From: Meghimatium bilineatum
Taxonomy: Eukaryota; Mollusca; Gastropoda; Stylommatophora; Philomycidae
NCBI GenBank assembly: GCA_034231615.1
Contig: CM067307.1
Coordinates: 6,689,013-6,753,012, forward strand
DNA length: 64,000 nucleotides
Reading direction: 5' to 3'
The notes under the pieces were generated by a model. The model searched no databases, was not told the DNA's origin, and saw only the letters and a program-made list of their open reading frames with translations. Of the stretch, positions 18,901 to 64,000 are shown piece after piece. A program made the translations under genes and the position numbers. Each line of letters begins with the position of its first letter. The first letter of the stretch is position 1.

Positions 18901-21900
18901 GCTGCCGAAGACCAACCAGATATACCAATCACCTACCATCAGAAAGAACAGATGATCAAGTCAATAAGAAAGCCACAAACACCAACACAAGATGACTATC
19001 ATATTATGAACAGACCAGAACAAGTTATAATTCTACGTCTCAGAACAGGACACAACCGACTCCGCAGTCACATGTATACAAACTTCAAGATTGGCAACAC
19101 GGCCATGTGTACATGTGGACAGGCAGCACAGAGTGCCAAACATATACTTCAAGAGTGTTCTGAGCATGAAACGCTGAGGCAGACATATTGGCCAGAGGAA
19201 ACAACACTGGAATCAAAGCTCTATGGGACACTGTATGAACTACAAAAGACAGTGAGTTTTATTAAGGAGACAGAATTACAGATATAGACATGTTTCAAGT
19301 GAACGAAAGAAGAAGAAGAAGAACAAATTCCTTTCTATGTTCCTGAACATACATTAAAAGATATCTTGATATATGTATCTTGATAAAAACCTTTATGATA
19401 AAAACATTGATTCTTTGTAGACCTATTGCTAAACGTAAAACTGTTATTTAACAATTTTTTGATTTTTTTGTCTATATTCACTTAGCTATTGGTGCAAAGT
19501 TTTACAGCAGTCTTCTATTTACTCAACATGAGAAAAGATAGTAGAATATTATGAGACATAAATTGTTATGGAATCTAGAGAGAACGATAAGAAGAGAAAA
19601 ACCCAGAAACTTCTGTAGAAGAGAGTTAGATATGGATTTAACATCTATGTGTTTCAGTGCAAAAACAGAAAAAAAAATAGTGCACTGTTTGCCTGCCATG
19701 CATGTAATAAGACACAGTTTAGGAGGTTTTAGGGATGGGGTTGGATGTCTCATTCCATATAGGGTCAAAGTGACCTAGAATCTATACCTGATGTTTGATG
19801 TTGTGTGTCAGGTCAAAAGGCACATTTATTGCAGCCAAGATATGAATGATGATACAGTGCATTTTGTTCTCTGGACAGCATCCTGCTCATCTGCTGGAGT
19901 TTAAGAAAAACTGCACAAGAAGAAGATATGGATACAGAATTGAAAGAGAAATAAATACCGTACATTTGGTGTTAGATTGTAATTATACCATTTAAAATAC
20001 ATAAAAATGAACATAGTTAATTTTGTGATATTTCAGTTAACATTGTCATTGTTAACAAACTATTCTCCTTTGTTTATTGTAGCTTTACGAGGATGGGCAG
20101 GCACATATCCCGAACAAAACGCATCCTTTTCAATCAAGCAAACAACAGAACGAGACTTCATGAATCTCAACAAAGCAGCCATTACAGCAGGATTAGTAAA
20201 ACCTACAGAAAACTTTGACTATAGGGCCACACATGATATTCGACAACCTCTTTTCAAAAACCAGAAGACAACAGGAAAGATGTCAAGAAGATTACCACCG
20301 ACCATGGTATTTGGTGTTCCTAGCAGGTTTGAAAATATTTTTCTAGAAGCACAACTATAATTTTGGTACCAGATACAATCACAGCAAGCAGGTCTCTTAT
20401 ATAAATATGTATTAAAATGAACACGAAATTAAATTCATTTATGGCATTTTCAAAATATTTATTATATATTCATATCTAAATTTATTTATAATGTTACCTA
20501 AAATACTATTATGTATCTTTAGTTTATCTATAATGTTATTCAAAATATGTGTTACATGTTTTAAATTTATCTGTCATCCAAAATATTTATTATGTAGGCT
20601 ATCTTAAATTTATATATATAATTTATTCCAACATATTTATTATAGGTCTATATCGTTAATTTATCTATGTCATCCAAAATATTATTATGTGCCGTAAATT
20701 TATCTGTTATTCCAAATATTACTATTATATCTTAAATGTATTTGTAATGGAACCCAGAAATATATATTAAATATTTTAAATTTATTTGTAATGTCATCCA
20801 AAATATGTATTAAATATCTAACATTTTTCTATAAAGGCACCCGGAAATATTTATTATGTACCGGTATCTTAAATTTATCTATAAAAATCATTGTAATTTT
20901 AATTCATTGTGTTGTCATTTTTATGTAGGGTGCAATATGTGTAAATTTTGTAATAGCCATCTTGTAAAATTATTACAGGAGTGCAGTATTGACTTACAAT
21001 TGTCCGCTGGATAGCAAACATGCTCATGTGTAGAAATGTTGTGCTGGGTGCGATCCTGGATTTCCGAGATCACAGCAATCGCACCGGGTTTGCCACAGGG
21101 ATCCCCATTGTATCCTATGCTTTTCAATGTGTACACCTTAAAATTTCACAACTGCAAAACATCTGGGCTAGGTAGGGTTTTCGCATATGCTGATGGGATT
21201 CTGCTATACAACCTAGGCAGAGTCAGAACTGATATCGCTGCCGGTTGTACAGAGAAAATTAGACCAATTGTCATTATGGTGTATTACTGACAATGCAGTT
21301 GTTAATCCTTCAAAGGCAACGGTCATCTGGTTTTTCTGAAATAGCAAACTAGTGACAGACACTATGTCAACTGTCAATTGTACAGGCTACATTATCGTTA
21401 GGGAACGAACACGATTAAAATATCTGGGGATAACTTTTGAGAGAAGTCTCTCACTCAGAAAACATATTGACAACATTCTTCAGAAAACAAAGAGAGGGAT
21501 CAGTGATATTATGGTGATGGCAGATGTAGACATGTAACAACGGTTACACTTTCTGCTGCTGTAAATACTACTGTTCTCTGTCAGTGATTATGACCTCTCT
21601 CTACTCACGCTGTCAAAGACACAAGTAGATAGATTGAAAACAATTTCAATATAAGCCTATGAAGATAGTGCTAGGATGTACTAGATGTCCTCATCATGGT
21701 CATGAGATTCCTGTTTGATTTCCCCAACATTTGGGTACGACATCAGTGGTGCAGATAAGGATATTTCTTGATGTAGCCAAAAATTACCACCAACCCTTAC
21801 ACCAAAATTTAGATATGCCATGGTTAGATATTACACATGCTATGTTACACATCTTATATTATTTATTTGTTCCATTTTAATTGTGTTCCATATTAATTTG

Positions 21901-45887: not shown

Positions 45888-46005
45888 ATGTAATCTATAC
45901 AAAATGTAAAAAAAGTCAATGTAATCTATACAAAATGTAAAAAAAGTCAATGTAATCTATACAAAATGTAAAAAAAGTCAATGTAATCTATACAATATGT
46001 ATACA
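45888..46005. repeat. 31-bp minisatellite, 4 units
   Basis: TCAATGTAATCTATACAAAA followed by TGTAAAAAAAG. Confidence 0.95.
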
Positions 46006-46084
46006 ACTCAATGTAATTTATCCACAATTCATCCAGTTGTTGATAAAACAAATAAAAACAACACTAGGTTAAGTTTGCTAAATT

Positions 46085-46358
46085 TATACCGGGTATTGAA
46101 AGGGGAGAAAGAATAGTGACATTGTTACCTGCCAAGCAGGTCGTAAGAGGCAACTAGGGAGGTTTTGGAGCAAAGTTGACCATCCCATTCCAATTCCATA
46201 GGATTAAAGTGACTCAAAAGCCATGCTGAAATTGGATGTGTCAGACTGAAAGGTGCAGATATCACAACTAAACTGTGAACCATGTCATATTGGATTCTGT
46301 TCTCTGAGCTACATCTTGCTGATCTGCAGGAGTTTGAGAATGAAAGCAGAAGAAAAAT
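46085..46358 (+). mobile_element. 5'-truncated SINE (family 2)
   Basis: GAAAGGGGAGAAAGAATAGT, TCGTAAGAGGCAACTAGGGA, then CTGCAGGAGTTTGAGAATGA and an AGAAGAAAA tail. Confidence 0.85.
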
Positions 46359-46422
46359 AAGCAATCAGAACAGAACCATCGCTGGAGAATAAGCAATCAG
46401 AACAGAACCATCGCTGGAGCTA
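46359..46422. repeat. 32-bp tandem duplication
   Basis: ATAAGCAATCAGAACAGAAC ... CGCTGGAG twice, directly at the SINE tail. Confidence 0.95.
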
Positions 46423-47055
46423 CAGAGTTTCTACCTGAAGTTTAGATAGCTGATGAACAGGAAAGTTGACCATTTATGGGAAACCTGACTTTCCATTATT
46501 CCACTACACCACTTGATAACTTATGACAATAACATTTGGTAAAATGTATACAAAATATATGTGCAATTTCAATTGAGTAAGATCCACAACATATAAATAT
46601 CAATCTTGTGAATCAGATGTGAATGTTGTGAACATAACACCTGAATATCAATCCTGCAACAAGATATATACCTCACATCTAACACATAGGCTATTTAATG
46701 ACAAATATTCTTCACACCTGGCAAGTATTCCTGCTACCTGACAAACAATACTACCACCTGACCAAGCCAGTAGATGAGGGAATGTTTGAGTTATTTAAAC
46801 CCCCTGCTCCCTTAGCAAATCAGAACATGATTTATGGTACTAGAAATTTAGCCACAAAGATGGGTAAATCCCACCTCTTAGCAATTTATCACAAAATGGT
46901 CATCAAATTATTCATCAAAAAGAGGAGTTTACACACGAAAACTCACAAATAATCTTTTTTTTTAAATATTTAGGTAAAACCTTCTCTTTAAAGAAATCAT
47001 ATTTATGGCCCTGTACCTGACAAACATTCCTGTCACAGAAATTTCCTGTGTGAAT

Positions 47056-47061
47056 TTTATT
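47056..47061 (-). terminator. Polyadenylation signal AATAAA for the rhomboid gene
   Basis: TTTATT on the + strand, about 50 bases beyond the rhomboid stop codon on the - strand, is the right distance for a short 3' UTR. Confidence 0.7.
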
Positions 47062-47109
47062 TAATTTTTAGATATATTCTCTTTACATGAGAGGTCAGCC
47101 ACTGGACAT

Positions 47110-47267
47110 TCAACTGTAGTCTTCCTGTGGGTATCCCCTGTAGGCAATATTGAAAATTACACAGAAGCCCACATATGCCATTGCTGTGAATATACTGAAC
47201 CAACCAGAGCTGTCTGTAAATGGGCTTGCCTTGTTGTCTTTCAAGAAGGATGGACCCAGGATAAAGC
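47110..47267 (-). CDS. Rhomboid exon h (seventh membrane segment and C-terminus)
   Basis: Acceptor ATCCTCTAG, 51 codons and TGA. FILGPSFLKDN, then GWFSIFTAMAYVGFCVIFNI and a short tail YRGYPQEDYS. Confidence 0.93.
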
Positions 47268-50200
47268 CTAGAGGATTATAGATAATGGCATTATGAGATA
47301 TTATATATGACAGTTTCAAATTGGATTCAATGAAATTATAGTTTAAAAACTGGAATGTATAAAAATATTCACTCAGAAAAGATAGTTTTAAGAAAGATTA
47401 GGGCAAGAAATTATCATTCCAAGTAGAATTTCCAAAGATAGCATTTTCTTTTAGCCTTTTAGCATTGCAGTCTTAAATGATAGATTCTGTAGAGCATCAG
47501 ACAAAAATGATAGTTTCATGAAGAAATACAGACAGACAAGTTAGTTTCAAATTAAAATTGCAGACAGAAATTAGTTTCAAATAAAATTATGAATGGAGAA
47601 GTTAATTTCAAATAAAACTGTGAATGGAGAAATTAGTTTCATGTAAAATTTTGAATGAAGAAATAAATTTCAAATAAAATTGTTGACAAAGAAGTTAGTT
47701 TCAAATGAAACTGTGAACAGAGGAATTATTTTCAAATAAAATTATTAACAGGGAAATTAATTTCAAATAAAATTGTAAAAGGAGAAACCAGTTTCAAATA
47801 AAATTGTGGACAGAGGTTAGTTTCAAGTAGAATTATTATCAGGGATAACACATTCAATTTCAAGAATGACTATATTCAGGATAACATGAAGTTTCAAGTA
47901 ATATGGAAGTCTGAAATAATACTTTGAAATAAAATTGTGTTCTGTCATTAAAAATTTCAAACAAAATTTTGTGATAACAACTTCAAGCATGATTATGTTA
48001 TGTGATCAATATTTCAAGCAAGATTGTGTTCTGTGATAAAAACTTTAAGCAAGATTGTGTTCTGTGGACAAAAACTCAAAACAAGATTGTAGACACAGAA
48101 TGAAAGTGTCAAGCAGTTTTGTTTTTTATAGTTTCAAGTGAGATTTTGTTGTACTGCATTTTCTACAGTATTCTTAGTGTTTGAGATGAAGGCATTATAA
48201 AACATACCCGTCACTAAGCCCGCAATGTGTGCAGCGAATCCAATTCTTCCATCATAATCGTTATTATAGTACCAACGTCTATAAGCTGCTATTATTATTT
48301 GTGGTATGACTGAAACATAAGGAATAATAAGAATGGATTGTATAACGCAATTGTCATGTGTTGATTATTGTTGGTAAGTGAGATAACTGAAAGATAAAGC
48401 AAAACAATCAAAGTAGATAAACTATGTATAAGGCCAATGTGGGTAAGGGAGATAATTTACAGATAAAAGCAGCATAACAAAGGCAGATAACTTATAGAAA
48501 AAGTCAGGTGGGAATAATTTATGAATACAATAACATAACATAGAGATATAACTTACAGAAAAAAGTGACATGATAACGGTATATAGCTTACAAATGTTTT
48601 TGTGCCTACATATGTATTTTATAGTTAATTAATCTTTATATTATATCAATAATTTATCAATAATTAATTTAAATATTCATTTTTGAGGGTTAGAAGTTAG
48701 GGTTAATTATGTTTTACATAAATAACTAATATTACATTGGGGTCTTTTGTTACCTCTAATATTTTATGGCAGTGTGTCCTGATATAACCTAAATGGACAT
48801 TGTTGCTCACTGGTTGAAAGAGGCACGCCTCTCCAAAAGAGAGGCACACTCATTAACCCTAAACATATTTATATTTAAATTAATAAATGATAAATATAAA
48901 GTAATAAACATAGCAAAGGGAAATAATCACATAGGTAGGCACTAATTCCAAACCAGTACCATTACAGATAAAGAAACATAAAGGGAGATAACTTACAAAT
49001 AAACTAGCATAACAAAGAGAGATAATTTACAGATAAATAACATGTTACTCTAGATGGCTTATATCTAAGTAACATTTTAAATGGAGCTAACATATGAATA
49101 AGTTATAAATGTAGATTACTTCAGGATGAGTAACATAATAAGGAAAATAACTTACAGATAACCAGCATAAGAATAGTTCTGAGAGTTAAGCTACACAGTA
49201 TTCTCTTCTGTTTGCTCTCTGTTTGGTCATTATTCAACTGTTTTCGATTCTGGAATATATCAAAATTATATTTATATATTAAATTCACACTGTTCTACAT
49301 TAATATTTTATGATATGCATGATTATACTTTTATTCATTAGGACCAGAACTCATGGTGACTGCAAATAGAATATAAAAACCCAGAGGCCATTGTGATTGG
49401 ATCACCAGAGCTGCAACCTATCATATTTTTGTATGGTTGTAAATCTCTGATAAAACCAAATTAGACAAATATCCTCAGTTGAAAGCAACATACATCAACA
49501 TAAGAGGTTGGTTGGTTGATTGGCTGGATGGTTGGTTGGCTGAATGACTGACTGGCTGGTTGGTTTGTTGATTGATTGATTGTCTAGTTCAGTGACTAAT
49601 TGGTTAGTTGTTTGACTGATTGGCTGGTTGGTTGGCTGGTTGATTGATTGGTTGGTTGGCTTGTTTTTTGTTGACTGGTTTGTTTTCTGGTTGACTGGTT
49701 GGCTGATTGTTTGGTTGGTTGGCTGGCTGGTTGGTTGGTTGGTTGGTTGGTTGGTTGGTTGATTGGGTTTTTTTGTTGGTTAACTGTGATATTGGTTAGT
49801 TGGCTTGTTGATTTGTTGATTTGTTGGCTGGTTGGTTTGCTTGTTGGTTGTTTGGCTAGATGATTGTTTTTTTGGCTGGCTTGTTGGTTGGCTGGTTTAC
49901 TGGTTGGTTTATTGGTTGACTTGTTGGTTGGTTGGTTGGCTGGCTGGATGGTTGGCTGGTTTGTTGGTTGGCTGGTTTTTTGGATGGTTGGTCTGTATGT
50001 TGGTTTGTTTTTTTGTTTGACTTGTTCATTGGCTGGGTAGCTGGTTGATTGGCTTGTTTGTTGGCTGGTTGACTTGGTTGGCCTGTTGGTTGGCTGATTG
50101 GTTGATTGTTGGCTGATTGGTTGGTTGTTGGCTGGCTGGTTGGCTAGCTGGTTGGTTGACTTGTTGGTTGTTTGGCTTGGTTAGTTAACCATTTTGTTAG

Positions 50201-53200
50201 TTTGTTGGTTGGCTTGGTTGATTGGTTGAATAGCTGGTTGGTTGGTTGGTTGATTGACTTAAAGGTTGTTGGTGTGCTGGTTCGTTAGTTAGTCATCAAA
50301 TCATCATCATTGCATTCCAGACACACTCATAGATGCTCCAATCTCCATTTGAATGTACATAACATTACACAATGACTGACAGTTGCAATCCTTTGAGAGA
50401 CATTCTTCTAAACCCACAGTAGCACTCATTTCTGGCAACTGCATTTCGAGTCCAGTTTATTCAGGAAATATAATTTATATTAGATTTCTTCATAACATCC
50501 TACTACTTATCCTTAATCCCATTACTTTCCATCTTTGTTACTGTAGCCCTTGCCTTTTTGTCAGATAATGTCTTTGTTACTGTAGCCCTTGCCTTTTTGT
50601 CAGATAATGTCTTTGTTACTGTAGCCCTTGCCTTTTTGTCAGATAATGTCTTTGTTACTGTAGCCCTTGCCTTTTTGTCAGATAATGTCTTTGTTACTGT
50701 AGCCCTTGCCTTTTTGTCAGATAATGTCTTTGTTACTGGAACCCTTGCCTTTTTATCAGATAAGGTCTGGATTCGTGTTATTACACAGACACACACATAC
50801 TGGCTCACACCACAAACATATACAGTATATACAATACATATAGAGTTATATAACAAGCAAAAACTACCACCAGGCATATACAGTACATCATCATGTGCCA
50901 TGCCGGCGGGCGTAGGCGGTCATGGCTCTCTACAGCTCTCTGTCCACAGTATTATGTATCAAAGTCGTTGTTGTTTCCTTGCCGTGCCAGGCTGTCAAAC
51001 TGTCTAATATTTTCTCACATTGTCACCCTCTATCTCTGTTATCTTCAATTTTGCCTGTTGTGACTATGTTCTCCAAACCTGCCTGTCTCATGACCTGTCC
51101 TATTCTGCATTTTATTTCTGTAGAACGTATTCCATTTGCTGTAATCATTGTACCTAAATATTTGAATTGGTTGATCTGTTTTGATACTATATCATTCACT
51201 GTGATCTTGCAAGATATAGTTATATAACTAGTAAAAACTACCACCTGGCATATACAGTACATATAGAGTTATATAACAAGCAAAAACCAAGCAGCAAAAT
51301 CAAAGAAGAACATACATGGAGAGATATTGCAACAGACTATTACCACTTACCCTCGACACAAATTACAAATGGTACTCGTGACACAGAAGTTAAAAGGAGA
51401 TAAGAAATGGCTAAAAGTATTTTCAGTAACATAAGGTAAATATTAACATCTAAATAAAATGAACAACAAACAAATTAAAACATGAGAACTATAAAATGCT
51501 ACATCTATTCTACATGTATGACTCCGAAACATGGATAATGAACCCCACAGAAGACAGATGTGTCGGGCCATTGTCACAAATAATACGGCGACACAATGCA
51601 TTTCCATTCTCTGGACTACATCCTGCTGGAAATCTAGTAGGACCATGGTCCTGCTATAAGAGAGATCGAGTGGGAGTTTGAGATTGAACGCTGAAGAAGA
51701 AGAATTGATGCCTTTAAGATGTGGACATATAGATGAAAGAGAAGAAAATACACAAAGAGATTCTGACAAAACTTCATATGAAAAATAACTATTAAAGGAA
51801 ATAAAAATCAAACAAATAAAATATTATGGACATATTAAAAGACATGAATTGTTGGAGAACATCACTTGAGTGCAGGCATAAAGATAAGAGTGGATGGGGT
51901 GTTGAAACCCCCCACCACCAACCTCAAACAAATCAGAGTATGACTTTTAACACTAGGAACATAGTTAAAAAGCTGAAAAACCAAAAAGAAATCAAATTTT
52001 CATGAAAAGGTAATCAAATTTTACATCATTATTGATGATCTGTCCTTTTTTAGAGCTTTAAAAGATCACATCTAAAGCCCTACAGTTGAGGTGAGTCAAG
52101 AAAGAAAGATGTAGACAGAGAAATTAGTGGGAGGGAAACTGAGTTAGAAAGGAACTGTATCCTAGGTAAAGCTATGACTTTTTGGTAGCATATCCTATCC
52201 AGGACGTAGTTATCAACCCAGCATTTATTGGCTGTGGTGATTTTCTAGGCAATATAAATACGTTCAGTAGGTTGCCATTGCTTTCTGAACGGTCCGGATG
52301 CACAATTGCCTGTGGTGAGGATCGAACTCGGTACCTTTGCCGTCACAGACGCGCTCTGTACCACTTCACCACAGAGCCGGACAATCATAGCTATGACTAT
52401 CATAGGTAAAGCCAGGACTGCAAGCCTAGGTAAAGCTAGGACTGTATCATACGTAAAGCTAGGACTGTAAGTTTAGGTAAAGCTGGGACAGTATCATATG
52501 TAAAGCTAGAACTGTAAGCCTAGGTAAAGCTGGGACTGTATCATAGGTAAAGCTAGGACTGTAAACCTAGGTAAAGCTGGGACTGTATCATAGGTAAAGC
52601 TAGGACTGTAAACCTAGGTAAAGCTGGGACTGTATCATAGAGATAAAGCTAGGACTGTAAACCTAGGTAAAGCTGGGACTATATCATCGGTAAAGCTAGG
52701 ACTGTAAGCCTAGGTAAAGCTAGGACTGTAAGCCTAGGTAAAGCTAGGACTGTAAACCTAGGTAAAGCTGGGACTGTATCATAGGTAAAGCTAGGACTGT
52801 AAGCCTAGGTAAAGCTGGGACTATATCATCGGTAAAGCTAGGACTGTAAGCCTAGGTAAAGCTGGGACTATATCATCGGTAAAGCTAGGACTGTAAGCCT
52901 AGGTAAAGCTGGGACTGTATCCTAGCTTTACCTAGGATACTGACTAGAAGAATGCACCAAGGAAAGAGGCAAAGACTGTTGGAGGTTGACATCAACCTAT
53001 GTTGAAGAGGCGGCATATAATAATGATAGCATGTCACTACTGACAATCTGGTAACTTACACAGACACACACACACAATTCAGTACAAATCATATAAATAT
53101 AAACCCATATTGATGTCAGCATGCACACACACACACACACACACATAAACACATACAGACAATTTATTACCTGCCACATAGCAACTGCATGAGCTGTCAT

Positions 53201-54449
53201 GATCGCATATGCTCCGGCAGCAGCACCGGTAAGACCAACATAATGGTCAACCAGCGACTGACTCAAAGAACCTTCAGAAACATTAAAACAGTCTAATGAG
53301 GGAACACAGAAGAAGTCTAATGAAATATGAAAACAGTCTAATGAGGGGTGCAAAGGGAACACAGAAGAAGAAGAAGAAGTCTAATGAAATATTATTTATT
53401 GAAATTTACTACGTATGTGGTGTGAGGGGACGTAGGAATTAACTTTTTAAAGCTTAAAATATGTGCTATTTTGGATTAATATGGTGAGATGGACTTACAT
53501 TCCAACTTTTTAATATTATGGCAGTTTCATTAAAATTTTGTTATAGTATGCACAGCTTTCGTGACGTCATTGAAGTCACATCACTAGCAAATCTTGCTGC
53601 CACAAAAACAAAATGACTAATGCTATCTGAGATGTCTGTTTACTGTGCACGCCAGCTATAGATATGTTTGCTATAGACTTGAGAAGAAAATATGAAATAA
53701 GTGAAAAGAATTATTCAACGGCTAAAGGGGGGATGTTGTGCTCTCAGTGGATTGCATGCAGATATTGCATCCGGCAGAAGTGAAATGTGTACTGCATCTT
53801 TATTGATATTTATGCTATGAATGATGGTTGATCGTATTCACGTTTGCTGTTAAGCGTAGTGGTGGGAGCTTCAGCTGTCCTTCTAAGGCCAGATGTATCA
53901 TCTTGGTTGCATTAATTCCATGTTTGTTCCAGGCTATTTTGATATTTTCTATCCACCATTTTCTTGGTCTACCTTTGGCCATATATCTGGATATTCTTTT
54001 GTTATATGCTCTTATTAATATTTGGGTTGGGTTCATGGTTCATTCTCATAAGGTGAACAAACCATTTTACTTGCTCTCTTTTGATATGCTCAATGCATGA
54101 TATTATACCAACTCTTTTCCTAATTTTGTCACTTCTTATTTTATCTATTTTAGTAACCATTGCAGCTTTTCTCAGACGCTTCATTTCACACATAACGATT
54201 TCTTTCTGCTGTGAGGCTGTTAAGGACCATGTTTGACATTGGTATAAAAATTGTAGATATTATCTGTCTTTTGTTTCCTATCTTGCTGTTTGGGTGAAGA
54301 AGTAATGGTGAAAGTTGGCAGGTATATATATATATATATATATATACATACATACAATATATACATACCTAACAACTTGCACCATTACTTCTTCACCCAA
54401 ACATCAAGATAGAAATCAAAAGACAGATGATATCCACAATTGTTATTAT

Positions 54450-54498
<49 letters not shown>

Positions 54499-57400
54499 CG
54501 TGCGTGTGTTTACCTACAATGTTATGACATAGTATATTATGTAAAAAAAAAAAAAAAGGAAAGTAACTCATAGCATTTATTAATTCTTCTTCTTCTTCTT
54601 CTTCTTCTGCGTTTGTTCTCAAACTCCTGCAGATTAGCAGGATGTAGTCCGGAGAACGTAATGCATTGTGTCATGGTTTACAGCATTGCTGCGATATCTG
54701 CGCCTTTCGGTCTGACACATCCAACTTCAGCATGGCTTTGGGTCACTGACCCTATATGGGATAGGATAGCCAACTTCATCCCATAACCTCCTTAGTCGCC
54801 TTTTACAACATGCGTGGAAGGTAAATAGTGTTGCTATTCTTTGCTCCCCTTTCAAGCCCCGGAAACACATGGGTGAGCATTTATTAATGCTGTAGGGGTG
54901 TGAGATGTTAGCGATCTCACATTTCAGAGGCTCTGCAAATGAGGGCGGTAGCCATCTCCTCTCCCTCGCAGTCTTTACTTCCCGGATTAATCCAGTACCC
55001 ATTTTAAGGCTGGTACGACCTAAGAGCTGTTGCGATCTGAAAAACATTTCCGCCTCAACTGGGGAATGAACCCAGGACCACTCACATGCGAAGCCAGTGC
55101 GCTAACCACTGCGCTACGCAGCTACCATTTATTTTTAGTATATTATGTATAGGTATGCATACCTGCAATTATCCCACAAACGTAGACGACAATCATTCTC
55201 CAAGTTGAGAAAGCAATCTCTAGGGGAACACCCAGAACCAACTGGATGATTATGTTAAAGATAAGATCGATGTACCTGAAATGTAGTACAGAACATCAAT
55301 CAGTCATTCAATCATGTGATCATCTTAGTGATTCTTATCATTCAACCTTTTTAACTCACTGTATTACCTTTATAATTTACAATATAAAACCAAAACAACA
55401 TGGACAAATATTATGTCCTCTTTGCCAAGAACTTATACTATGGAATCCTGTGTACACATATTTCAATGTTATGTGGTATTTTAGAAACATATACCAAGTT
55501 TCCTAATGTCTGTCATCATTGTGCACTTATTAGGCCCTATTCTACAATATCTTTAACATGGTGATCTTGAACACATTGTGATAACAAGCAAGTTGAATAG
55601 CAAGAAAGTTAGAAGCAGACCAAGAGTGAAGATGCTTGACAACCTGGCATTGTAGCATGGGAGAACATCGGTATCAGAAATGTTTGACAAAACACAAAAC
55701 AAAAGTCTGTGAAAAGATATAATAACCAATGCCACATGACATGGACCACGAGAAGAAGAATATTACTACATAAAAAAAATTGAATAGTTGGCAGCTACAT
55801 CCTGATTGAATTTACTGCCAATTTTATGTGTGAACTTGTGGAAATTAGTGCAAGTTTCCAAGTCCAGTAGTGATTGTTCGATTCTCAGTCAAAGTGTGAA
55901 ATTTTTAGACTATAAATACCTGGTGAATAAACTGCTTTAAAATGGACCTAATTTCTGGGAAAGTAATTTATAGGCCTATGACTGAATACTGACCATATCA
56001 CCCCTATAATTCTGCTGATAAAAGAAAATTCAGGATCTAATTATTCTCCCATATACCTGAATGATGTTAAAAAAAATGAACTACCAAAACTTACCCTGGA
56101 TGCAAGAAGCAATATGTAACAAACCGCCAAGCCTCGTGTCTTCTGGTAGGGTGATACATTGCCTTGCTGCAACCATAATTGGTGACACTAGAGTTATCAG
56201 CATACACATTCCTCAAAGGGTAGGAGGTGACGTTGCTTTCTTGTGATTGGATTATAAATACAACAATCTGAAAGAAAACCCAGATCAATCAACCAATAAA
56301 ACCTCTACAGCATTGATGTTATTTTGATAAAAAGGAACAGAGAACAATGAGTATTTTTTAGCATTAGTTCTAAAACTCCCACTGCATCCCTTTTGTAGCA
56401 GGATAATGATCCTATTATATATCCAGCAGGAATCAGGATGCAGTCCTTCCAGAGATTGGAGATCAGGGTTGCCAGAAAGTTGAAATTGATTATGATAAAA
56501 TTTCTAGTAAAATTTTGGTCAAAACAGAACACCTAACTTTTATTACAATTTTACAGACCAAAAATTATCAAAACATAAATTTAATTGCCAGTGAAGTGAG
56601 ATTTAAAAATGACAAAATTATTTTAATTTGGCACCACCGAAGATGAGGATCTCAGGCCATTGGCGCAAATAAAATGGCAACACAGAGCATTTCCATTCTT
56701 TGGAATATATCCTGCTGGAAATCTAGTAGGAGCAATGTCCTGCTACAAGAGAGATCCAGCGGAAGTTTGAGAATGAACGTTGAAGAAAAAGTTAAATTTG
56801 GCAACAAATTATCAAATCCTGACAACCCTGAAGAAGATGCATTATGTCACCATTTCATATGCAAAGTTTTACAATTTACATAACAGTCTCACCGCTTTAT
56901 TGCCAGGGCCCGAAAAGGGAACAAAGAATAGCAACACTGCGACCTGCCACATATGTCATAAGAGGCGCCTGAGAAGATTTTGAAGTTGGGTTGGCAGTCC
57001 TATCCCATAGAGAGTCAAGGTAACCCATAATCCAAGCTGCTGTTATATATGTTAGGCAGAAAAGCGCAGATATTGCAAGCAAGCTGTAAACCATTACACA
57101 GTGCATTCTGTTCTCTGAACTACTACATGCAAATATGCAGAAGTTTGATCATGCATGCAGAAGAAGAACAAGGAAACAGACTAAATCACTCACACAGATC
57201 TATATACAACAGGTCACAAAACAGACTGAATCGACAAACAGTAAAGCTGATATTGCAAATGAACTATACTCTAGAAATTTAATAATCGAAATACAAGAGA
57301 AACAATTATGTATTAAGGAAAAAGAAACATTATAAAAAGTTGAGAAATTTGGGAAAAACAAAAAATAGGACTGGAAACAGATAGAATGATAAATCAGCAT

Positions 57401-60400
57401 AACTAGATATACAAATGAAGTGTATTAATACCAAATGTATTTAGAGTACCATACTGCAAGGAAATACCAAGCAGTATCGTCAGTGGAGCATGATTTAATT
57501 ACAGTGACTTGAATTTCACAGCCACCAAGATGATCTATTTCAATCAAATTCATAGCAATAATAGTTAAGAGATTAGGTGGTTAATATCATTAAAGATGTT
57601 GGCAGAAATGACCACCAAGTCTCATGTCAGTTTCACCTATAAAGGTAATGTACTGCATTAATAAATTATTGCATAAATAATATCACGAGACTCAAATATA
57701 AGCTGTTATCAATAGTAAATATGGTTATATAATATGACATGGTACAGGTCTGCATGACATAGACATATGCCTTAAGATCACCAGATTCCCAAACAAACCC
57801 TGCCAAAATAGCACAAAATGTTGACTTAGAAGAGACAGCTATGGACAAACATGTCCTCAAGACCTTTTAAAGTTATTCCACCAACAAATGACTGGTTAGA
57901 TATTTGTATTTTATTTCATGTTCATCGTTTACATTTGGGTTGTCCTACTAGAGATCTGCTAATTGTTGTGGGAATCTTCTATACTTCCATATAGGGCTAA
58001 GTGTAGTTCTATAATAAATAGACAGAAGAAATAGTTCAGTCGTTAGTGCATTGCCTTCCTAAGGGTGCAAATCTCAACTGATTTGGAATAATTTTTTGCT
58101 CACAACTGACAACTATGGTCAACTCTAACAACTATGGTCAACTCTAGCAACTATGGTCAACTCTAACAACTATGGACAACTCTAGCAACTATGGGAAACT
58201 CTACCAACTATGGGCAACTCTAGCAACTATGGTCAACTCTAGCAACTATGGTCAACTCTAACAACTATGGACAACTCTAGCAACCATGGACAACTCTAGC
58301 AACTATGGTCAACTCTAACAACTATGGGCAATTTTAATAACCAGCTCTGAAGAACCTACCCACCACCCAAATTTCCCATAGGAAACAAGGGCTTCATTGC
58401 TCATAATTAATAACTACCAAGAATAAAAACAAGCACAATATACACACCCTACAAATAAAAAAAATAAGTCTGGATCTGTTGTGGTGTGGTACAGTGCACA
58501 TCTTGAGGCCCAAGGTACCAGGTTCAAACTCCAATATAGGTAACTACTCATCTGGGTCATACATAAATTAATGGCAGCCTACGGAACATATATATATATT
58601 TCTTACAAAAGCATCACAATCCAAAAATGTTAGGTTGACCACTACATCCTGAATAAGATATGCGACCAACTGACAGACAGAAAGATTGTATTGCAAAACT
58701 TCCACCTTTGATCAGTCGAAACTTTAAACATATTTGCCAACAGAAATATCCTCCGGATGACCGGTAAGGAGACACAAACACTTTTAAGACATTAAGGCAC
58801 AATATTAAACATAAAGGTTGGGACATATTGGTGCACATAGAGGTTGGGACATATTGGTGCACATATAGATTGGGACATATTGGTGCACATAAAGGTTGGG
58901 ACATATTGGTACACATAAAGGTTGGGACATATTGGTACACATAAAGGTTTGGACATATAGGTGCACATAAAGGTTGGGACATATTGTGCATATAATGGAT
59001 GAGACACATTGGTGCACATAAAGGTTGGGACATATTGTGCACATAATGGTTGAGACATATTGTGCACATAATGGTTTGGACATATTGGTGCACATAATGG
59101 TTGGGACATGTTAGTGCACATAATGGTTGGGACATATTGGTGAACATAATGGTTGGGACATATTGGTGCACATAATGGTTGGGACATATTAGTGCACATT
59201 TACATTTAACAAATAAATCTTCCTAATAAGAGTGAAACATATAATGGTTAACATATACCAGCTGAACACATACTAGTTAAACATATACCAATTAAACATA
59301 TGCCAATTAAACATATACCAATTAAACATATGCCAATTAAACATATACCAATTAAACATATGCCAGTTAAACATATACCAATTAAACATATGCCAGTTAA
59401 ACATATACCAATTAAACATATGCCAGTTAAACTACAAATTTACCTGAGCCACTGTGACAGCAATCATGAAGAATGGAGGAGGAATACATTTATAGTTATC
59501 CAAGCGTTCATCAACCATGAGCTGATTTGTTGTATTTCTGCAGACCACCTTTAGAATGCCCTTTGTCTTCCCCAGGTGGCTCTTCTTCTTTTCGCCGCTG
59601 ATACCAGTCTGTGACCCAAAGCTACTGCCATCATCTTGTCTGCCCAAAACCTACAGAAACATTATTGTTCAGTTAGATATATGTGGCCTAGATGTTTGGA
59701 TTCCATGCACATAATTTTGTTTGTTTATTATAAAAACATGTTATCCAGTCATTTTGCATGATACCATGGTTCCTGGTACACCTCTTAGCCTGGTATCTCT
59801 GACTTCAGCACCAGTGATGATTGCTTGCAAAGGACTATGGTCCTGCTCAATGTCAAGGATGACCTGACCAATCTTAGTTTCCAGCTTCTGTTGGCTGGAC
59901 TAAGCCTCATCTCCACTTGCACAGAATGACAATAGGCCTATACATACTGAATTAAAATATCCTGCAATATTGATCTCTAAGCATTGAATGAAGATACAGT
60001 AGGCTTACATGAAAAGAATGGAGATACAAGGAAATGCTGTGTACATCCACGTAGACCCTATACCTCTGAGTACCTCAAATTTGTGGAGCGCTGTAACCTA
60101 GTTGATAGTGAACTTGCTTACTATCACAAATTACAGTGTACCAGGTTCGAAACCACGTCCAGGCATAAATAATCAGGGTCAAGATTTCTTGCCTACATGA
60201 CCGTTCCTCCAGTAGACCCAGTTGTAAATGAATAGCTGACACATGAGTTGGGGAAGGTAAACACAAGTTGGGGAAGGTAAACACAAGTTGGGGAAGGTAA
60301 ATACAAGTTGGGGAAGGTAAACACAGCAAGGAAGAGAACTAGCAAACTCACCTAATAGTTGCTGTGACTTAGAACATGAAGAGTTAGCTTCATCCCCAAT

Positions 60401-60690
60401 GGCAAGTTGCTGCCATAGGACATTCCTTTATCTAAACTTTAAACACATTAAATCTTTCAAAGTTTAATGTGAAAAGGAAGACTAGGATGAAAAGTAAATA
60501 TTTTATAAATGTAAACAAAATCACTTACAATTCTGACAAATTCCTCGTACTTGACAGCTCGGCCCATATTGAAGTCTGTCAAATCTGCAAGCTCCTGAAC
60601 TTTGTCTGCTGGGAGACGATTCCTATACTCAGGGTCTCTCAGAATTTTTCGCAGGTCATGACAAGCCATTTTTTCGCCTCCATAGACAAA
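47110..60690 (-). CDS. Rhomboid-related (RHBDL-type) membrane protein, predicted pseudoprotease; N-terminus missing
   Basis: Eight exons on the - strand join in phase: 60690-60529, 59650-59444, 56267-56095, 55275-55163, 53271-53171, 49249-49156, 48309-48208, 47267-47110. This gives 369 codons plus stop. Layout: degenerate EF-hand-like N-terminus, basic linker, CIPPPFFMIAVTVAQ (first membrane segment), a lumenal loop with HEAWRFVTY, then five further hydrophobic segments and GWFSIFTAMAYVGFCVIFNI as a seventh. This is the order of RHBDL1-3, intramembrane serine proteases. The serine motif GxSGG is replaced by GAAAG (residues 234-238), and the position of the first active-site His (HAGxxH) is Asp (HPGYID, residue 184). 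Asn188 and the last His (FAAHIAG, residue 311) remain. So it is probably catalytically dead and may bind clients like other rhomboid pseudoproteases; that role is inference. Start codon and first exon(s) not found in the window. Confidence 0.9.
47480..48145. repeat. Degenerate array GTTTCAAATAAAATTGTG, about 33-37 bp period
   Basis: About 17 imperfect units fill most of the intron between rhomboid exons g and h. Confidence 0.75.
48208..48309 (-). CDS. Rhomboid exon g (sixth membrane segment with the active-site histidine)
   Basis: Acceptor ATGTTTCAG, donor ACGG|GTATGT. IPQIIIAAYRRWYY, then RIGFAAHIAGLVTG with the conserved His. Confidence 0.95.
48320..49165 (-). repeat. Degenerate donor-like array after rhomboid exon f
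   Basis: On the + strand GAGATAACTTACAGATAAA-like motifs recur (about 48450, 48485, 48546, 48985, 49020, 49146). The last one is the real donor of exon f (TTATCT|GTAAGTTAT on the - strand). The period is irregular, about 35-45 bases where clear. Confidence 0.55.
49156..49249 (-). CDS. Rhomboid exon f (fifth membrane segment)
   Basis: Acceptor ATATTCCAG, 31 codons plus one base, donor TCT|GTAAGT. Hydrophilic start (NRKQLNNDQTESKQKR), then hydrophobic LTLRTILMLVI continuing into exon g. Phase fits both neighbours exactly (0 in, 1 out), which supports an exon with little sequence conservation. Confidence 0.85.
49390..49500. repeat. Dispersed repeat fragment
   Basis: CACCAGAGCTGCAACCTATC and TTTTTGTATGGTTGTAA resemble 7320-7400; probably a LINE 3' untranslated end. 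Confidence 0.4.
49505..50295. repeat. G/T-only strand-asymmetric TTGGTTGGC tract, about 0.8 kb
   Basis: Degenerate GGTTGGTTGGCTGGTTGATT runs; the + strand is almost only G and T with scattered C. It lies in the intron of the rhomboid gene. Confidence 0.9.
50530..50770. repeat. 39-bp minisatellite, 6 units
   Basis: CTTTGTTACTGTAGCCCTTG followed by CCTTTTTGTCAGATAATGT. Open on both strands because 39 is divisible by three. Confidence 0.95.
50885..51240 (-). pseudogene. LINE fragment with internal deletion
   Basis: - strand: KITVNDIVSKQINQFKYLGT, MITANGIRSTEIKCRIGQVM, RQAGLENIVTTGKIEDNRD. The middle (YGCES...FYRRML) is missing compared with 5725-6126. An ATC tail remnant is at the left end. 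Confidence 0.75.
51550..51708 (+). mobile_element. Short GAA-tailed SINE-like element (family 2b)
   Basis: CATTTCCATTCTCTGGACTA, CATCCTGCTGGAAATCTAGT, then GATTGAACGCTGAAGAAGAAG. Same family as 21963 and 56640. Confidence 0.75.
51709..52169. other. Intronic, no gene seen
   Basis: Unique sequence. The first units of the GGTAAAGCT array begin just before the SINE at 52180. Confidence 0.4.
52180..52388 (-). mobile_element. tRNA-derived SINE (family 1), inserted in a minisatellite
   Basis: Nearly identical to 5267-5478, with - strand A box TGGTGAAGTGGTACAGAGC and B box GAGTTCGATCC. Flanked by a 10-base duplication AGCTATGACT (52170-52179, 52389-52398) made from an array unit. Confidence 0.9.
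52399..52940. repeat. About 46-bp dimeric minisatellite of GGTAAAGCTRGGACTGTA units
   Basis: Alternating halves end in ...AAGCCTA or ...TATCATA. About 11 dimers, some deleted to monomers at 52700-52760. Confidence 0.93.
53040..53160. repeat. (CA)n microsatellites
   Basis: ACACACACAC runs at about 53060-53075 and 53124-53145, immediately downstream of the rhomboid exon e donor. Confidence 0.9.
53171..53271 (-). CDS. Rhomboid exon e (catalytic-serine region, serine lost)
   Basis: Acceptor TTTCTGAAG, donor CAG|GTAATA. VGLTGAAAGAYAIMTAH replaces the usual VGxSGGVYALxxAH. The three Ala codons are GCT GCT GCC, so no single-base sequencing error restores both Ser and Gly. Confidence 0.95.
53275..53395. 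repeat. Imperfect duplication with GAAGAAG runs
   Basis: AGTCTAATGAGGG and ACACAGAAGAAG blocks repeated; directly upstream of rhomboid exon e. Confidence 0.7.
53396..53814. other. Intronic, no gene seen
   Basis: Unique sequence. Confidence 0.4.
53815..54260 (-). pseudogene. LINE 3' fragment (family 3)
   Basis: - strand broken frames: QCQTWSLTASQQKEIVMCEM, KRLRKAAMVTKIDKI, IISCIEHIKREQVKWFVHLM, then AKGRPRKWWIENIKIAWNKH. This is the uninterrupted version of the SINE-split copy at 5165. Confidence 0.75.
54320..54560. repeat. (AT)n, (CT)n and poly-A microsatellites
   Basis: (AT)n about 54321-54346, (CT)n about 54452-54493, A-run about 54543-54557. Confidence 0.95.
54582..55125 (-). mobile_element. 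Full-length tRNA-derived SINE (family 2), about 544 bp
   Basis: - strand: the tRNA-like head has a consensus A box (TAGCGCAGTGGTTAGCGCA) and B box (GGGTTCATTCC). A body with GGTCGTACCAGCCTTAAAAT and the conserved 3' portion (GGGGAGCAAAGAATAGCAAC ... CTGCAGGAGTTTGAGAAC) follow, then a (GAA)n tail. The 8-base duplication CATTTATT is at 54574-54581 and 55126-55133. This copy defines the family, whose other members here are 5'-truncated. Confidence 0.93.
55163..55275 (-). CDS. Rhomboid exon d (second membrane segment, Asn present, His replaced)
   Basis: Acceptor ACATTTCAG, donor GCAG|GTATGC. YIDLIFNIIIQLVLGVPLE: Asn and Gln of the H-x3-N-x3-Q pattern are kept, but the His is Asp. Confidence 0.95.
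55555..55755 (+). pseudogene. LINE 3' end fragment
   Basis: LEHIVITSKLNSKKVRSRPR, VKMLDNLAL, HGRTSVSEMF, then a GAAGAAGAA tail. Related to 3270-3655. Confidence 0.65.
55840..56045 (+). mobile_element. SINE-like repeat (family 4), partial
   Basis: TTTCTGGGAAAGTAATTTAT and CCATATCACCCCTATAATTC match the body at 32640-32740. Confidence 0.45.
56095..56267 (-). CDS. Rhomboid exon c (first lumenal loop)
   Basis: Acceptor TTCTTTCAG, 57 codons plus two bases, donor CCAGG|GTAAGT. Contains AMYHPTRRHEAWRFVTYCF and ends LHP(G); the WR of the L1 loop is conserved. Confidence 0.95.
56355..56475 (-). mobile_element. SINE-like (family 2b) fragment
   Basis: CTAAAACTCCCACTGCATCC ... CAGGAATCAGGATGCAGTCC is a diverged reverse of family 2b. 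Confidence 0.5.
56636..56795 (+). mobile_element. SINE-like (family 2b)
   Basis: CATTTCCATTCTTTGGAATA, ATCCTGCTGGAAATCTAGTA, GTTTGAGAATGAACGTTGAA. Confidence 0.7.
56900..57170 (+). mobile_element. 5'-truncated SINE (family 2)
   Basis: GGGCCCGAAAAGGGAACAAA, CATAAGAGGCGCCTGAGAAG, then ATATGCAGAAGTTTGATCAT and a GAAGAAGAA tail. Confidence 0.85.
57171..58105. other. Rhomboid intron, no gene seen
   Basis: Unique AT-rich sequence. A weak tRNA-like string (AGTTCAGTCGTTAGTGCATT) at about 58030 may be a SINE head. Confidence 0.4.
58108..58338. repeat. 19-bp minisatellite, about 12 units
   Basis: CAACTCTAGCAACTATGGT with small variants. Confidence 0.95.
58485..58575 (+). mobile_element. tRNA-like SINE head
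   Basis: A box-like TGTGGTGTGGTACAGTGCA and B box CAGGTTCAAACTCC at tRNA-like spacing. Not a good tRNA fold by eye. Confidence 0.5.
58800..59205. repeat. 26-bp minisatellite, about 15 units
   Basis: GGTGCACATAAAGGTTGGGA followed by CATATT. Three open frames on the - strand are by-products. Confidence 0.95.
59235..59432. repeat. 15-bp minisatellite, about 13 units
   Basis: AATTAAACATATACC alternating with AATTAAACATATGCC, ending about 12 bases from the rhomboid exon b donor. Confidence 0.95.
59444..59650 (-). CDS. Rhomboid exon b (linker and first membrane segment)
   Basis: Acceptor TTTCTGTAG, 69 codons, donor CAG|GTAAAT. A basic linker (GEKKKSHLGKTKG), then YKCIPPPFFMIAVTVAQ at the start of the first membrane helix, a family hallmark (CPPP). 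Confidence 0.93.
60080..60178 (+). mobile_element. tRNA-like SINE head
   Basis: TAACCTAGTTGATAGTGA (A box-like) and CAGGTTCGAAACCAC (B box-like). Confidence 0.5.
60240..60326. repeat. 20-bp minisatellite, about 4 units
   Basis: ACAAGTTGGGGAAGGTAAAC. Confidence 0.95.
60529..60690 (-). CDS. Rhomboid exon a (EF-hand-like region)
   Basis: Acceptor GCTATTAG, 54 codons in phase 0, donor ATT|GTAAGT. Contains MACHDLRKIL and ADLTDFNMGRAVKYEEF, which aligns with the EF-hand of RHBDL3-type proteins but lacks most calcium-binding acidic residues. An internal ATG is present, but the phase-0 frame open from the acceptor suggests an upstream exon. Confidence 0.85.
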
Positions 60691-60780
60691 CTAATAGCAA
60701 TTGTAATAAAAGCAATGTGTTAAACAAGAAGACTAAATAAGGGATGCACATACTACATGAGATACACTGCACATTCTAGA

Positions 60781-61064
60781 CCAGTGTTTCCCAACCCTTT
60801 TTTAGTGTTTCCCAACCTTTTTTTAGTGTTTTCCAACCTTTTTTTAGTGTTTCCCAACCTTTTTTTTTAACCATGCCCCACCTATGTCTTTCTAAAATTC
60901 TATGTCATAAGAAAATTGAATTCCACTATGTAAAATATACATATTTTTAAAAAAAATTGAATTATTTCCTAAATGAGGCCTAATTACAACGTGTTTGAAT
61001 TGACCCCCCTGAACAATCAAATTGCACCACTGGGGGGTGCGGGCGCCATGGGAAACACTATTCT
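60781..61064. mobile_element. hAT-type MITE with an amplified terminus
   Basis: Ends CCAGTGTTTCCCAACC and GGGAAACACT. The target duplication ATTCTAGA sits at both sides (60773-60780 and 61065-61072). AGTGTTTCCCAACCTTTTTT is repeated four times at the left end only. No coding. Confidence 0.88.
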
Positions 61065-62234: not shown

Positions 62235-63513
62235 TCATTCATAATCAGACGAGTCAAATAGGTCGATTACTGTTTTCGGCTGAACAAACAACAAACCTTC
62301 CTTTTTCCAATATTCCTCTTCTTGGCGTAACACATGATCCTCACATTTCACCCAGTAGTCTTTATGTATATTTGATAGAGCCTGATTTGTAAGAGTCTCA
62401 ATATCACATAATTTGAAAGTTGTATTTGTAGATGCTACGTGTCCTTTAACTTTTGCCCAAATTAGCTCTATAGGATTTAAGTGTGCATGATATGGAGGTA
62501 GTCTCAAACATCTATGACCATGTTCTTCAATTAACATGTCTATTTTAAATATCTTTGTTCGTTGTGTCTGTTTTACAAGGTTAAGCAATTCGGGTTTCAA
62601 GTACCTGTCGGTAAATGGTATGTGTTCTTTTATGAGCCACGTTTTGATTGCATCTTTTGTACTTGATGATGTTGGGATTCTATCTTCTACGTTCACTACG
62701 TTATGGTATGAAGCATTGTCCATTATCAGACAAGAAGGTCTATCTAATATTGGAAGAATACTTTTTTCGATCCAGTCTTCGAATATGTGCCCATTCATTT
62801 CGGAGTGGTAGTCTCTATTGTCAATGGATTTTGAAATGAAAATTAGATGAGCATTCTGCAACAACCCATTATGTCTGCTACCTGCATGTGCAACTATCAA
62901 ACGTTGCCCTTTACTACTTGGTACTGATCTTTTAATACTTCCATCTGCTAACTGCCATTCCTTTTCATTTGTATGATGAGCGTTGATCCAAGTTTCATCT
63001 AAATACACAATATCATAACCATTCTCGCGTATTCCCTTCACGTAAATACTTGCTTCTAAGAGCTACCAGATGTGGCTTTTCACAAATAATGTTTTTTCCA
63101 CCAGCATACTTTCTAAAGGTGAAGCCTGCATTTCTTACAGTTTTCCATAATAAAGTTTTTGATATTTCAATGTCGTTATTAGTTTTCAGCCAAATCTTCA
63201 ACTTTCTAAGTGTCACTTCTTCGTTTTTATCAAACATTCTACATATTTCTCTTTTTACTAGGTCCTTATCGAAACTGTCTATCTTTTCTTTCCTTCCTTG
63301 CTTTCGTGAATTTGTTGGCAATAAATATGCGCTTGCTTCCACTATTCGATCAAATGAACGTTTACACAAACCTAAAATATGCATTGTTCTCTTCTCAGGA
63401 TTTGATAAAGAACAATAAAGATGTCCCTTTTTACGCTCTCTGCAGAAGTATTGATAAATCTTTATAGCAATGTTATGCTCAGTAAAATATTTCGCTTTCA
63501 GATTCATTCTCAC
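62235..63513 (-). pseudogene. DDE transposase, broken by one frameshift
   Basis: The N-terminal frame (63513-63013) holds a helix-turn-helix-like region with KKGHLYCSLSNPEKRTM and a winged region; it ends KYLREGNTREWL then stop. The second frame (from about 63041) carries VYLDETWINAHH (first Asp), CLIMDNASYHN (second Asp) and HAHLNPIELIWAKVKGHVA (Glu), the catalytic triad of DDE_3/IS630-type transposases. The frames overlap, so a single indel near 63030-63041 separates them. By count 83 residues lie between the second Asp and the Glu, far more than the 34-41 of classic Tc1 and mariner. It is probably inactive in this copy. Confidence 0.9.
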
Positions 63514-64000
63514 ATAGACTTGCAGAAGGTAATATGCTTAGTGCCGCCTACATTCTGTAAATATTGAGACGTGCCTCTGACTTGTGACTTGAAATCGAGT
63601 CAATATCCGTTTTTGATTTCACATAATTCTAAGTTCAGGAAAAATAATATTTGGTGCTAAACGGGAATTTCCATATGTAACATTGCTTTATACAAATGTA
63701 CAGTGGAAACAACTACTTTTAGAACGGTGCACATTCTACCGTGAGGGTCATGCCTTTATATTTAATAATCAGATGTGAGATGTAAGCATCTACATAATCC
63801 AGCGGTTGTTTATAATTTAGATTAACTTTTTTTTAATATAGGTTAAATAAGGTATCTTTGATACTGGATCACATTTCTTTGATAAAAAAATATTTCTATA
63901 GCGACATTATTATTCTAAACCTAACTTCAAATGATCAATCCAAATGAACAATACGTTTTTGATAAAAATAATTTAACATCTCGGCAAACGATTCTGAACG

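What the first reader, a model, noticed from the sequence alone, without database searches (positions are those of the whole stretch)
47110..60690. A RHBDL-family rhomboid that has lost its catalytic serine and one active-site histidine
All exon joins are in phase, so the gene looks intact, yet GxSGG is GAAAG and the HAGxxH histidine is Asp, while the WR loop, Asn188, the GFxAH histidine and the membrane layout are kept. Rhomboid pseudoproteases are established (iRhoms, derlins), but those have other hallmarks. This looks like an independent loss within the RHBDL1-3 type. Selective retention of the fold suggests a client-binding or trafficking role (inference).
Basis: partly seen in the sequence, partly recalled or inferred. 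Interest (0 to 1): 0.78.

Follow-up and report, generated by a model that had tools for sequence, protein, structure and literature searches.

The report
Snail rhomboid lacking its catalytic serine
A mollusc genome carries an intact but fast-changing copy of a membrane-embedded protein-cutting enzyme (a rhomboid) that has lost the amino acid doing the cutting, beside working-type copies elsewhere in the same genome, so it has probably become a non-cutting binding protein, a fate already known for other rhomboids.

Summary
On the minus strand eight exons (60690 to 47110) join in phase with AG/GT sites into 369 residues matching Pfam Rhomboid (E 9e-27). In a gap-free alignment with active-type paralogues the catalytic serine is Ala236 (GAAAG), the next glycine Ala237, and the oxyanion-site His is Asp184; Asn188, the dyad histidine H311 and WR are kept. 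It is RHBDL-type: seven of seven introns match a paralogue on the same chromosome (one phase partly by construction). That paralogue (two tandem copies) and a third RHBDL gene keep every catalytic residue, so the loss is specific to this copy. No alternative GxSG exon was seen. A codon model rejects a wholly neutral branch and recent pseudogene decay fits badly (joint probability at most 2e-6), yet the gene evolves faster than its paralogue. Best reading: a lineage-specific RHBDL pseudoprotease, most likely binding membrane clients without cutting. It lacks iRhom hallmarks. Inactive rhomboids outside the iRhoms are on record, so this is a new member of a known kind. Open: orthologues, expression, selection after the loss, the N-terminus, and whether Thr233 (GLTG) could serve as a shifted nucleophile (unlikely).

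The parts
60529..60690 (-). exon a: degenerate EF-hand region (FVYGGEKMACHDL...EEFVRI); possible start ATG at 60669, or continuation of an unseen upstream exon
   Evidence: Pfam EF-hand matched 2 of the 4 members of alignment A1, and the listed table for the window protein shows no EF-hand; that the two are the C10 copies is inferred, since the C23 model has no exon a
59444..59650 (-). exon b: linker and first part of TM1 (CIPPPFFMIAVTVAQ)
56095..56267 (-). exon c: end of TM1, short loop, WRF, first His of the histidine motif (HPG)
55163..55275 (-). exon d: YID (His to Asp, residue 184), Asn188, TM2-TM3
   Evidence: the one exon of this gene listed by the Pfam scan of the genome
53171..53271 (-). 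exon e: TM4 with GAAAG in place of GxSGG
53213..53227 (-). GAAAG codons (residues 234-238); catalytic Ser position is residue 236
49156..49249 (-). exon f: loop and start of TM5
48208..48309 (-). exon g: end of TM5, loop, start of TM6 with kept dyad histidine (FAAHIAG, H311)
47110..47267 (-). exon h: end of TM6, TM7, C-terminus YRGYPQEDYS, stop

Best explanation
A lineage-specific rhomboid pseudoprotease derived from an RHBDL-type secretase. Shown: the gene is intact, it is RHBDL by intron pattern and sequence, there is no Ser at the catalytic position, and paralogues in the same genome keep the full catalytic set. Inferred: the protein folds as a 6+1 rhomboid, cannot cleave, and has been kept for a non-proteolytic task. 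Most likely it holds transmembrane clients of the ancestral protease through the lateral gate, either competing with the active paralogues or steering clients in trafficking or degradation. The exact task is the least certain step (about 0.35 for client binding that modulates the active RHBDL paralogues or shared substrates).
For: Intact eight-exon frame. Rhomboid domain E 9.1e-27. Seven of seven introns match the C10 paralogue in alignment column and phase; the five introns of the C23 model also match; exon f of the C10 copies was sought under the window's phase and exon f of C23 by its first residues, so the f/g phase is partly by construction. Active-type paralogues: C10:22.376-22.394 and 22.450-22.467 Mb (HQGYMH, GASGG, VTAHIGG) and C23:80.517-80.538 Mb (HAGYVH, GSSGG, YTAHLAG). 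Codon model: window-branch omega 0.058, lnL -3578.12, against -3588.15 with omega fixed at 1 (twice the difference 20.05). Neutral decay after loss: the probability that the frame stays open and three catalytic-site codons all change peaks at 2.0e-6, or 3.1e-5 with no indels. Ten overlapping hydrophobic peaks that I group into seven regions at the family's places; Asn188, H311 and WR kept.
Against: Only one sequence carries the loss, so selection after the loss is not measured. Synonymous change is saturated (window branch length 24.5 in the free model) and omega is badly determined: one shared omega (0.225) is only 1.5 lnL units worse. The gene evolves faster than its paralogue (40 against 16 unique changes, chi-square 10.3), which also fits weak constraint. 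The EF-hand region is degenerate. No expression data. A dead RHBDL2 did not reproduce the iRhom effect (PMC3149277), so loss of catalysis alone need not create a regulator. One pairwise alignment sets Thr233 opposite the GlpG serine.
Confidence: 0.69

Rival explanations
1. A very recent pseudogene: function was lost and the frame has not yet broken.
For: Faster evolution than the paralogue and 39 of 102 otherwise invariant columns changed; degenerate EF-hand region; only one copy seen.
Against: Frame, stop and all splice sites intact; the indel rate measured on the tandem copies (27 gap openings to 207 mismatches) leaves little time, and three catalytic-site changes within it have joint probability at most 2e-6.
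Confidence: 0.14
2. A protein kept for a task unrelated to ancestral substrates, for example membrane thinning or a scaffold using the cytosolic N-terminus.
For: The exon b linker is longer than in the paralogue and unlike it; a review points to bilayer thinning by rhomboids, active and inactive (PMC12615303, abstract).
Against: Nothing specific here; WR and the Asn are kept.
Confidence: 0.07
3. Sequence or gene-model error: the true exon e or d carries GxSG and HxxxxH.
For: No RNA or genomic reads available; the splice model rests on sequence only.
Against: A minus-strand scan of 46000-61000 found a single GxSG string, at 56389, without rhomboid context; the changes lie in two exons about 2 kb apart and keep the frame.
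Confidence: 0.05
4. Still a protease, with Thr233 in a GLTG motif three residues earlier taking the serine's place.
For: Window reads G231-L232-T233-G234 where the paralogues read A or F, L, V, G; phmmer sets it opposite GlpG's GLSG with a gap.
Against: Needs a three-residue shift within TM4 and loses the spacing of four to Tyr240; the oxyanion His is Asp as well; threonine is a poor substitute in this site (recalled).
Confidence: 0.03
5. A divergent iRhom, that is, a member of the known pseudoprotease family.
For: Inactive rhomboid; [quoted passage not shown]
Against: No proline before the serine site (GAA, not GPx), no long TM1-TM2 domain, RHBDL intron pattern; the genome has iRhom-like loci on C23 and C24 with GPSG.
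Confidence: 0.02

Closest known systems
RHBDL1-3 type rhomboid secretases (own-genome paralogues C10:22.38/22.45 Mb and C23:80.5 Mb)
   Same: Rhomboid domain, 6+1 hydrophobic layout, intron positions and phases; C-terminal tail YxGYPxxDxS shared with the C10 pair
   Different: Ser to Ala, next Gly to Ala, oxyanion His to Asp, degenerate EF-hand; 35% identity (119 of 342) to C10 copy 2
C. elegans ROM-3 / ROM-4
   Same: Rhomboid-like proteins reported without the intact catalytic triad (PMC519001, passages read)
   Different: Nematode lineage; that they are not iRhoms is recalled, and their residues were not compared here
iRhoms (RHBDF1/2, Drosophila rhomboid-5)
   Same: Catalytically inactive animal rhomboids
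   Different: iRhoms have GPx, an IRHD of about 230 residues and a long N-terminus (PMC6451368, PMC3149277, passages); the first two are absent here
Other inactive rhomboids: derlins, RHBDD3, UBAC2, Dsc2, Arabidopsis At1g74130
   Same: Rhomboid fold without proteolysis (PMC12615303, PMC7065720, passages)
   Different: No sequence comparison made here; this protein's nearest relatives found are RHBDLs
YqgP S288A of Bacillus subtilis
   Same: A rhomboid with Ser changed to Ala still acts as a substrate adaptor (PMC7231995, passages read)
   Different: Engineered mutant of a bacterial protease whose own N-terminal domain is needed

Membership tests
RHBDL-type rhomboid (by descent) | Rhomboid domain | tested here: met
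   PF01694 E 9.1e-27, 94.4 bits
RHBDL-type rhomboid (by descent) | Shared exon structure with active-type RHBDL paralogues | tested here: met
   7 of 7 introns in column and phase; f/g phase partly by construction
RHBDL-type rhomboid (by descent) | Extra helix at the C-terminus (6+1), Ser site in TM4, His in TM6 | tested here: met
   Hydropathy only, ten overlapping peaks grouped into seven regions; no structure predicted
RHBDL-type rhomboid (by descent) | Place in a tree with RHBDL1, 2 and 3 of many animals | not tested
   No collection of animal sequences on hand; that the paralogues themselves are RHBDL is by resemblance to recalled human RHBDL3
Active rhomboid protease | GxSG serine | tested here: not met
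   GAAAG by gap-free paralogue alignment; one pairwise alignment sets GLTG there
Active rhomboid protease | Dyad histidine in TM6 | tested here: met
   FAAHIAG, H311
Active rhomboid protease | HxxxxHxxxN oxyanion site | tested here: not met
   HPGYIDLIFN: second His is Asp, Asn kept
iRhom | Proline before the serine site (GPx) | tested here: not met
   GAA; feature from PMC3149277 and PMC6451368
iRhom | IRHD of about 230 residues between TM1 and TM2 | tested here: not met
   About 45 residues between residue 128 (TM1 peak end) and 173 (start of the next peak)
iRhom | Long cytoplasmic N-terminus | tested here: inconclusive
   109 residues before the TM1 peak seen; upstream exon not located by a scan that also failed on the paralogues
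Functional pseudoprotease | Purifying selection after the loss, with expression | tested here: inconclusive
   Omega 1 rejected for the whole branch, not for the time after the loss; expression not testable

The most novel reading that the evidence does not exclude
Land snails (or a wider mollusc group) evolved their own iRhom-like regulator from an RHBDL protease: a dead copy on the same chromosome as its active tandem relatives, whose Asp184 and Ala-rich site make a client-holding pocket that tunes growth-factor release by those active copies.
Probability: 0.2. Interest if true: 0.65.

Novelty: new member of a known kind. Interest (0 to 1): 0.42.

Why it matters
Animal rhomboid pseudoproteases are mostly discussed as iRhoms and derlins, both ancient. 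A later, separate loss inside the RHBDL type, with active-type relatives in the same genome, would give a natural comparison for how a membrane protease becomes a non-cutting protein, and would show which residues (Asn188, H311, WR) stay when catalysis is gone.

Tried and rejected
Relatives outside this genome: a scan of viral contigs with the window protein found nothing; a scan of bacterial and archaeal genome contigs with the four-member alignment A1 confirmed 47 of 92 matched stretches, all bacterial by their record titles, so nothing was learned about orthologues. The 47 served as a residue panel. L066 was kept in the counts; its chosen frame holds no HxxxxHxxxN, so it should count as unread.

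Papers: searches for rhomboid with 'catalytically inactive' and mollusc (0 papers), rhomboid-related protein with snail (1, a breast-cancer cell paper by its listing) and lineage-specific RHBDL2 paralogues (0) found no report of this protein; rhomboid with gastropod gave 151 papers, of which the 15 listed are taxonomy, fossils or morphology by title. Other searches gave the papers cited. Only the open subset of PubMed Central held here was searched.

Upstream exon: a narrow motif scan of 3.3 kb in the window plus 20 kb beyond gave no candidate, but gave none upstream of the two C10 paralogues either, so it says nothing. The C1 exon was first taken for another RHBDL; its serine-site exon resembles iRhoms. 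The C20 match looks like TMEM115 (recalled). A first splice with exon b one base short broke the frame and was corrected. No structure was predicted: the tool takes proteins that the DNA gives letter for letter, and this one is spliced; I did not try.

Changes made on checking: the GlpG alignment's gap at the serine site was added as a point against and as a rival (0.03), and the best explanation was lowered from 0.72 to 0.69.
Full report
What is there. The window lies in an unnamed 1.61 Gb genome of 32 contigs, at C10:6689013-6753012. It is probably a mollusc: the family Haemocyan_bet_s (PF14830) gives 50 matches, all on C15 and C22; that the family is molluscan is recalled, and the 14 control genomes without a match are prokaryotes, so they add little. 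Size and contig number fit a stylommatophoran snail or slug (31 chromosomes and an ancestral genome duplication are described for Deroceras laeve in PMC12506671, passages read), but the species is not established.

The gene. On the minus strand eight exons with GT..AG introns join in phase to 369 residues and a stop. Pfam finds the Rhomboid domain at residues 167-325, E 9.1e-27. In the gap-free alignment with three paralogues the catalytic serine is Ala236, the next Gly is Ala237 and the oxyanion-site histidine is Asp184; His179, Asn188, the dyad histidine H311 and W170-R171 are kept. The PDB search (best match GlpG, E 3.4e-4) agrees at the histidine motif, but puts a three-residue gap at the serine and so sets Thr233 of GLTG opposite GlpG's serine. 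I prefer Ala236 because it needs no gap against closer relatives and keeps the spacing of four to Tyr240, but a Thr233 nucleophile is listed as a rival. GlpG numbers are recalled. In a panel of 47 bacterial loci, Ser is found in 46, the oxyanion His in 46; the exception, L066, was read in a wrong frame, and the other 46 all have the Asn and the dyad His. These loci were fetched by patterns that include WRF, so WR cannot be judged from them.

Is the model right? A scan of the minus strand from 46000 to 61000 for GxSG and two forms of the histidine motif found one GxSG string, at 56389, without rhomboid context. So no alternative active-site exon was seen. The start is open.

Its relatives in the same genome. 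The Pfam search lists 13 exon matches from 27 candidates. Read, with names given by resemblance and recall: iRhom-like loci on C23:84.5 Mb and C24:39.98 and 40.04 Mb with GPSG; RHBDD1-like loci on C4 and C2; a divergent iRhom-like locus on C1; a TMEM115-like one on C20; and three RHBDL genes besides this one. Two of these are tandem copies at C10:22.376-22.394 and 22.450-22.467 Mb, 96% identical in protein (341 of 354) with 207 mismatches over 10,444 bases in the five blast pieces kept (pieces under 93% identity, far off register or overlapping were dropped); they may be a recent duplication or uncollapsed haplotypes. The third is at C23:80.517-80.538 Mb. All three keep the full catalytic set. 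The window gene is 35% identical to C10 copy 2 (119 of 342) and 32% to the C23 gene (79 of 250); copy 2 and C23 share 41% (103 of 251). All seven introns match those of C10 copy 2 in alignment column and phase, and the five introns of the C23 model also match. Exon f of the C10 copies was sought under the window's phase and exon f of C23 by its first residues, so that phase is not independent; the other boundaries came from similarity and splice signals. So this is an RHBDL by descent, and catalysis was lost on its own branch or that of unseen orthologues. A whole-protein search of the genome for a second copy did not complete; the Pfam scan lists one copy.

Selection. A branch codon model on four sequences and 342 codons gives omega 0.058 for the window branch when free (lnL -3578.12) and 0.225 for one shared omega (-3579.61), and is much worse with omega 0.5 (-3583.89) or 1 (-3588.15) on that branch. 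Synonymous change is saturated, so the value is not to be read closely, but a wholly neutral branch is rejected. This does not date the loss. A second argument: the tandem copies give 27 gap openings to 207 mismatches; at that rate a neutral frame of this length has a 0.15 chance to be intact at 1% divergence and 0.003 at 3%, whereas three catalytic-site codons all changing by then is rare; the product peaks at 2.0e-6 (3.1e-5 without indels). The calculation assumes that 80% of indels break the frame, counts 28 splice-site bases, and takes about 2.2 nonsynonymous sites per codon. Against a strongly kept gene: it has 40 unique changes against 16 in C10 copy 2 with C23 as outgroup (chi-square 10.3), and keeps 63 of 102 columns that are invariant in the three active-type sequences. 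Pfam's EF-hand matched two of four members, and the window protein's table does not list it. It is a faster, partly relaxed, but intact gene.

How it probably works. Inferred: a 6+1 rhomboid that cannot cut but may still admit transmembrane helices. YqgP with its serine changed to alanine still presents its client to FtsH (PMC7231995, abstract and passages), so the fold can do such work without cutting. On the other side, an ER-targeted catalytic mutant of mouse RHBDL2 did not down-regulate EGF as iRhoms do (PMC3149277, passages), so loss of the serine does not by itself make an iRhom-like regulator; the other changes here would have to supply that.

What is known. iRhoms are set apart by GPx, a long N-terminus and the IRHD (PMC3149277, PMC6451368, passages). 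This protein lacks GPx and the IRHD; the N-terminus is unresolved. Inactive rhomboids outside the iRhoms are on record: of five C. elegans rhomboid-like proteins only ROM-1 keeps the triad (PMC519001, passages; that ROM-3 and ROM-4 are not iRhoms is recalled), RHBDD3, UBAC2 and Dsc2 are listed as inactive (PMC12615303, passages), and At1g74130 is an inactive PARL-type rhomboid (PMC7065720, passages). Hence a new member of a known kind. Searches for a report of it in molluscs found none in the held papers.

Noticed in passing
window 15913-19284 (+): Overlapping long frames with endonuclease, reverse-transcriptase and RNase H-like sequence, a LINE in several frames (read by eye; no family search run).
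   Followed up: no
window 62238-63537 (-): Two frames resembling a DDE transposase (by eye), just upstream of the rhomboid gene, in the stretch where a further exon might be expected.
   Followed up: no
window 49506-50256, 52398-52925, 58809-59199, 59250-59432: Introns of the gene hold long tandem repeats, of period 4, 24/47, 26 and 15/30.
   Followed up: no
window 55059-55116 (-): A tRNA-like match of 29.6 bits, barely over the Rfam cut-off of 29, in the intron between exons d and e, perhaps part of a SINE.
   Followed up: no
G000:C10:22376108-22393601 and 22450203-22466990 (loci L009-L016, L025-L028): Tandem active-type RHBDL genes about 74 kb apart, about 98% identical in DNA; copy 2 has Leu-Ser-Asn where copy 1 has Leu-Phe-Asn at the oxyanion Asn.
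   Followed up: partly
G000:C1:2276900-2280000 (minus; loci L006, L018): An iRhom-like gene whose serine-site exon reads VGSTSGVGG rather than GPxG, and whose other exon lacks the first His of the histidine motif (WRFLTAIPLVYGVIH).
   Followed up: partly
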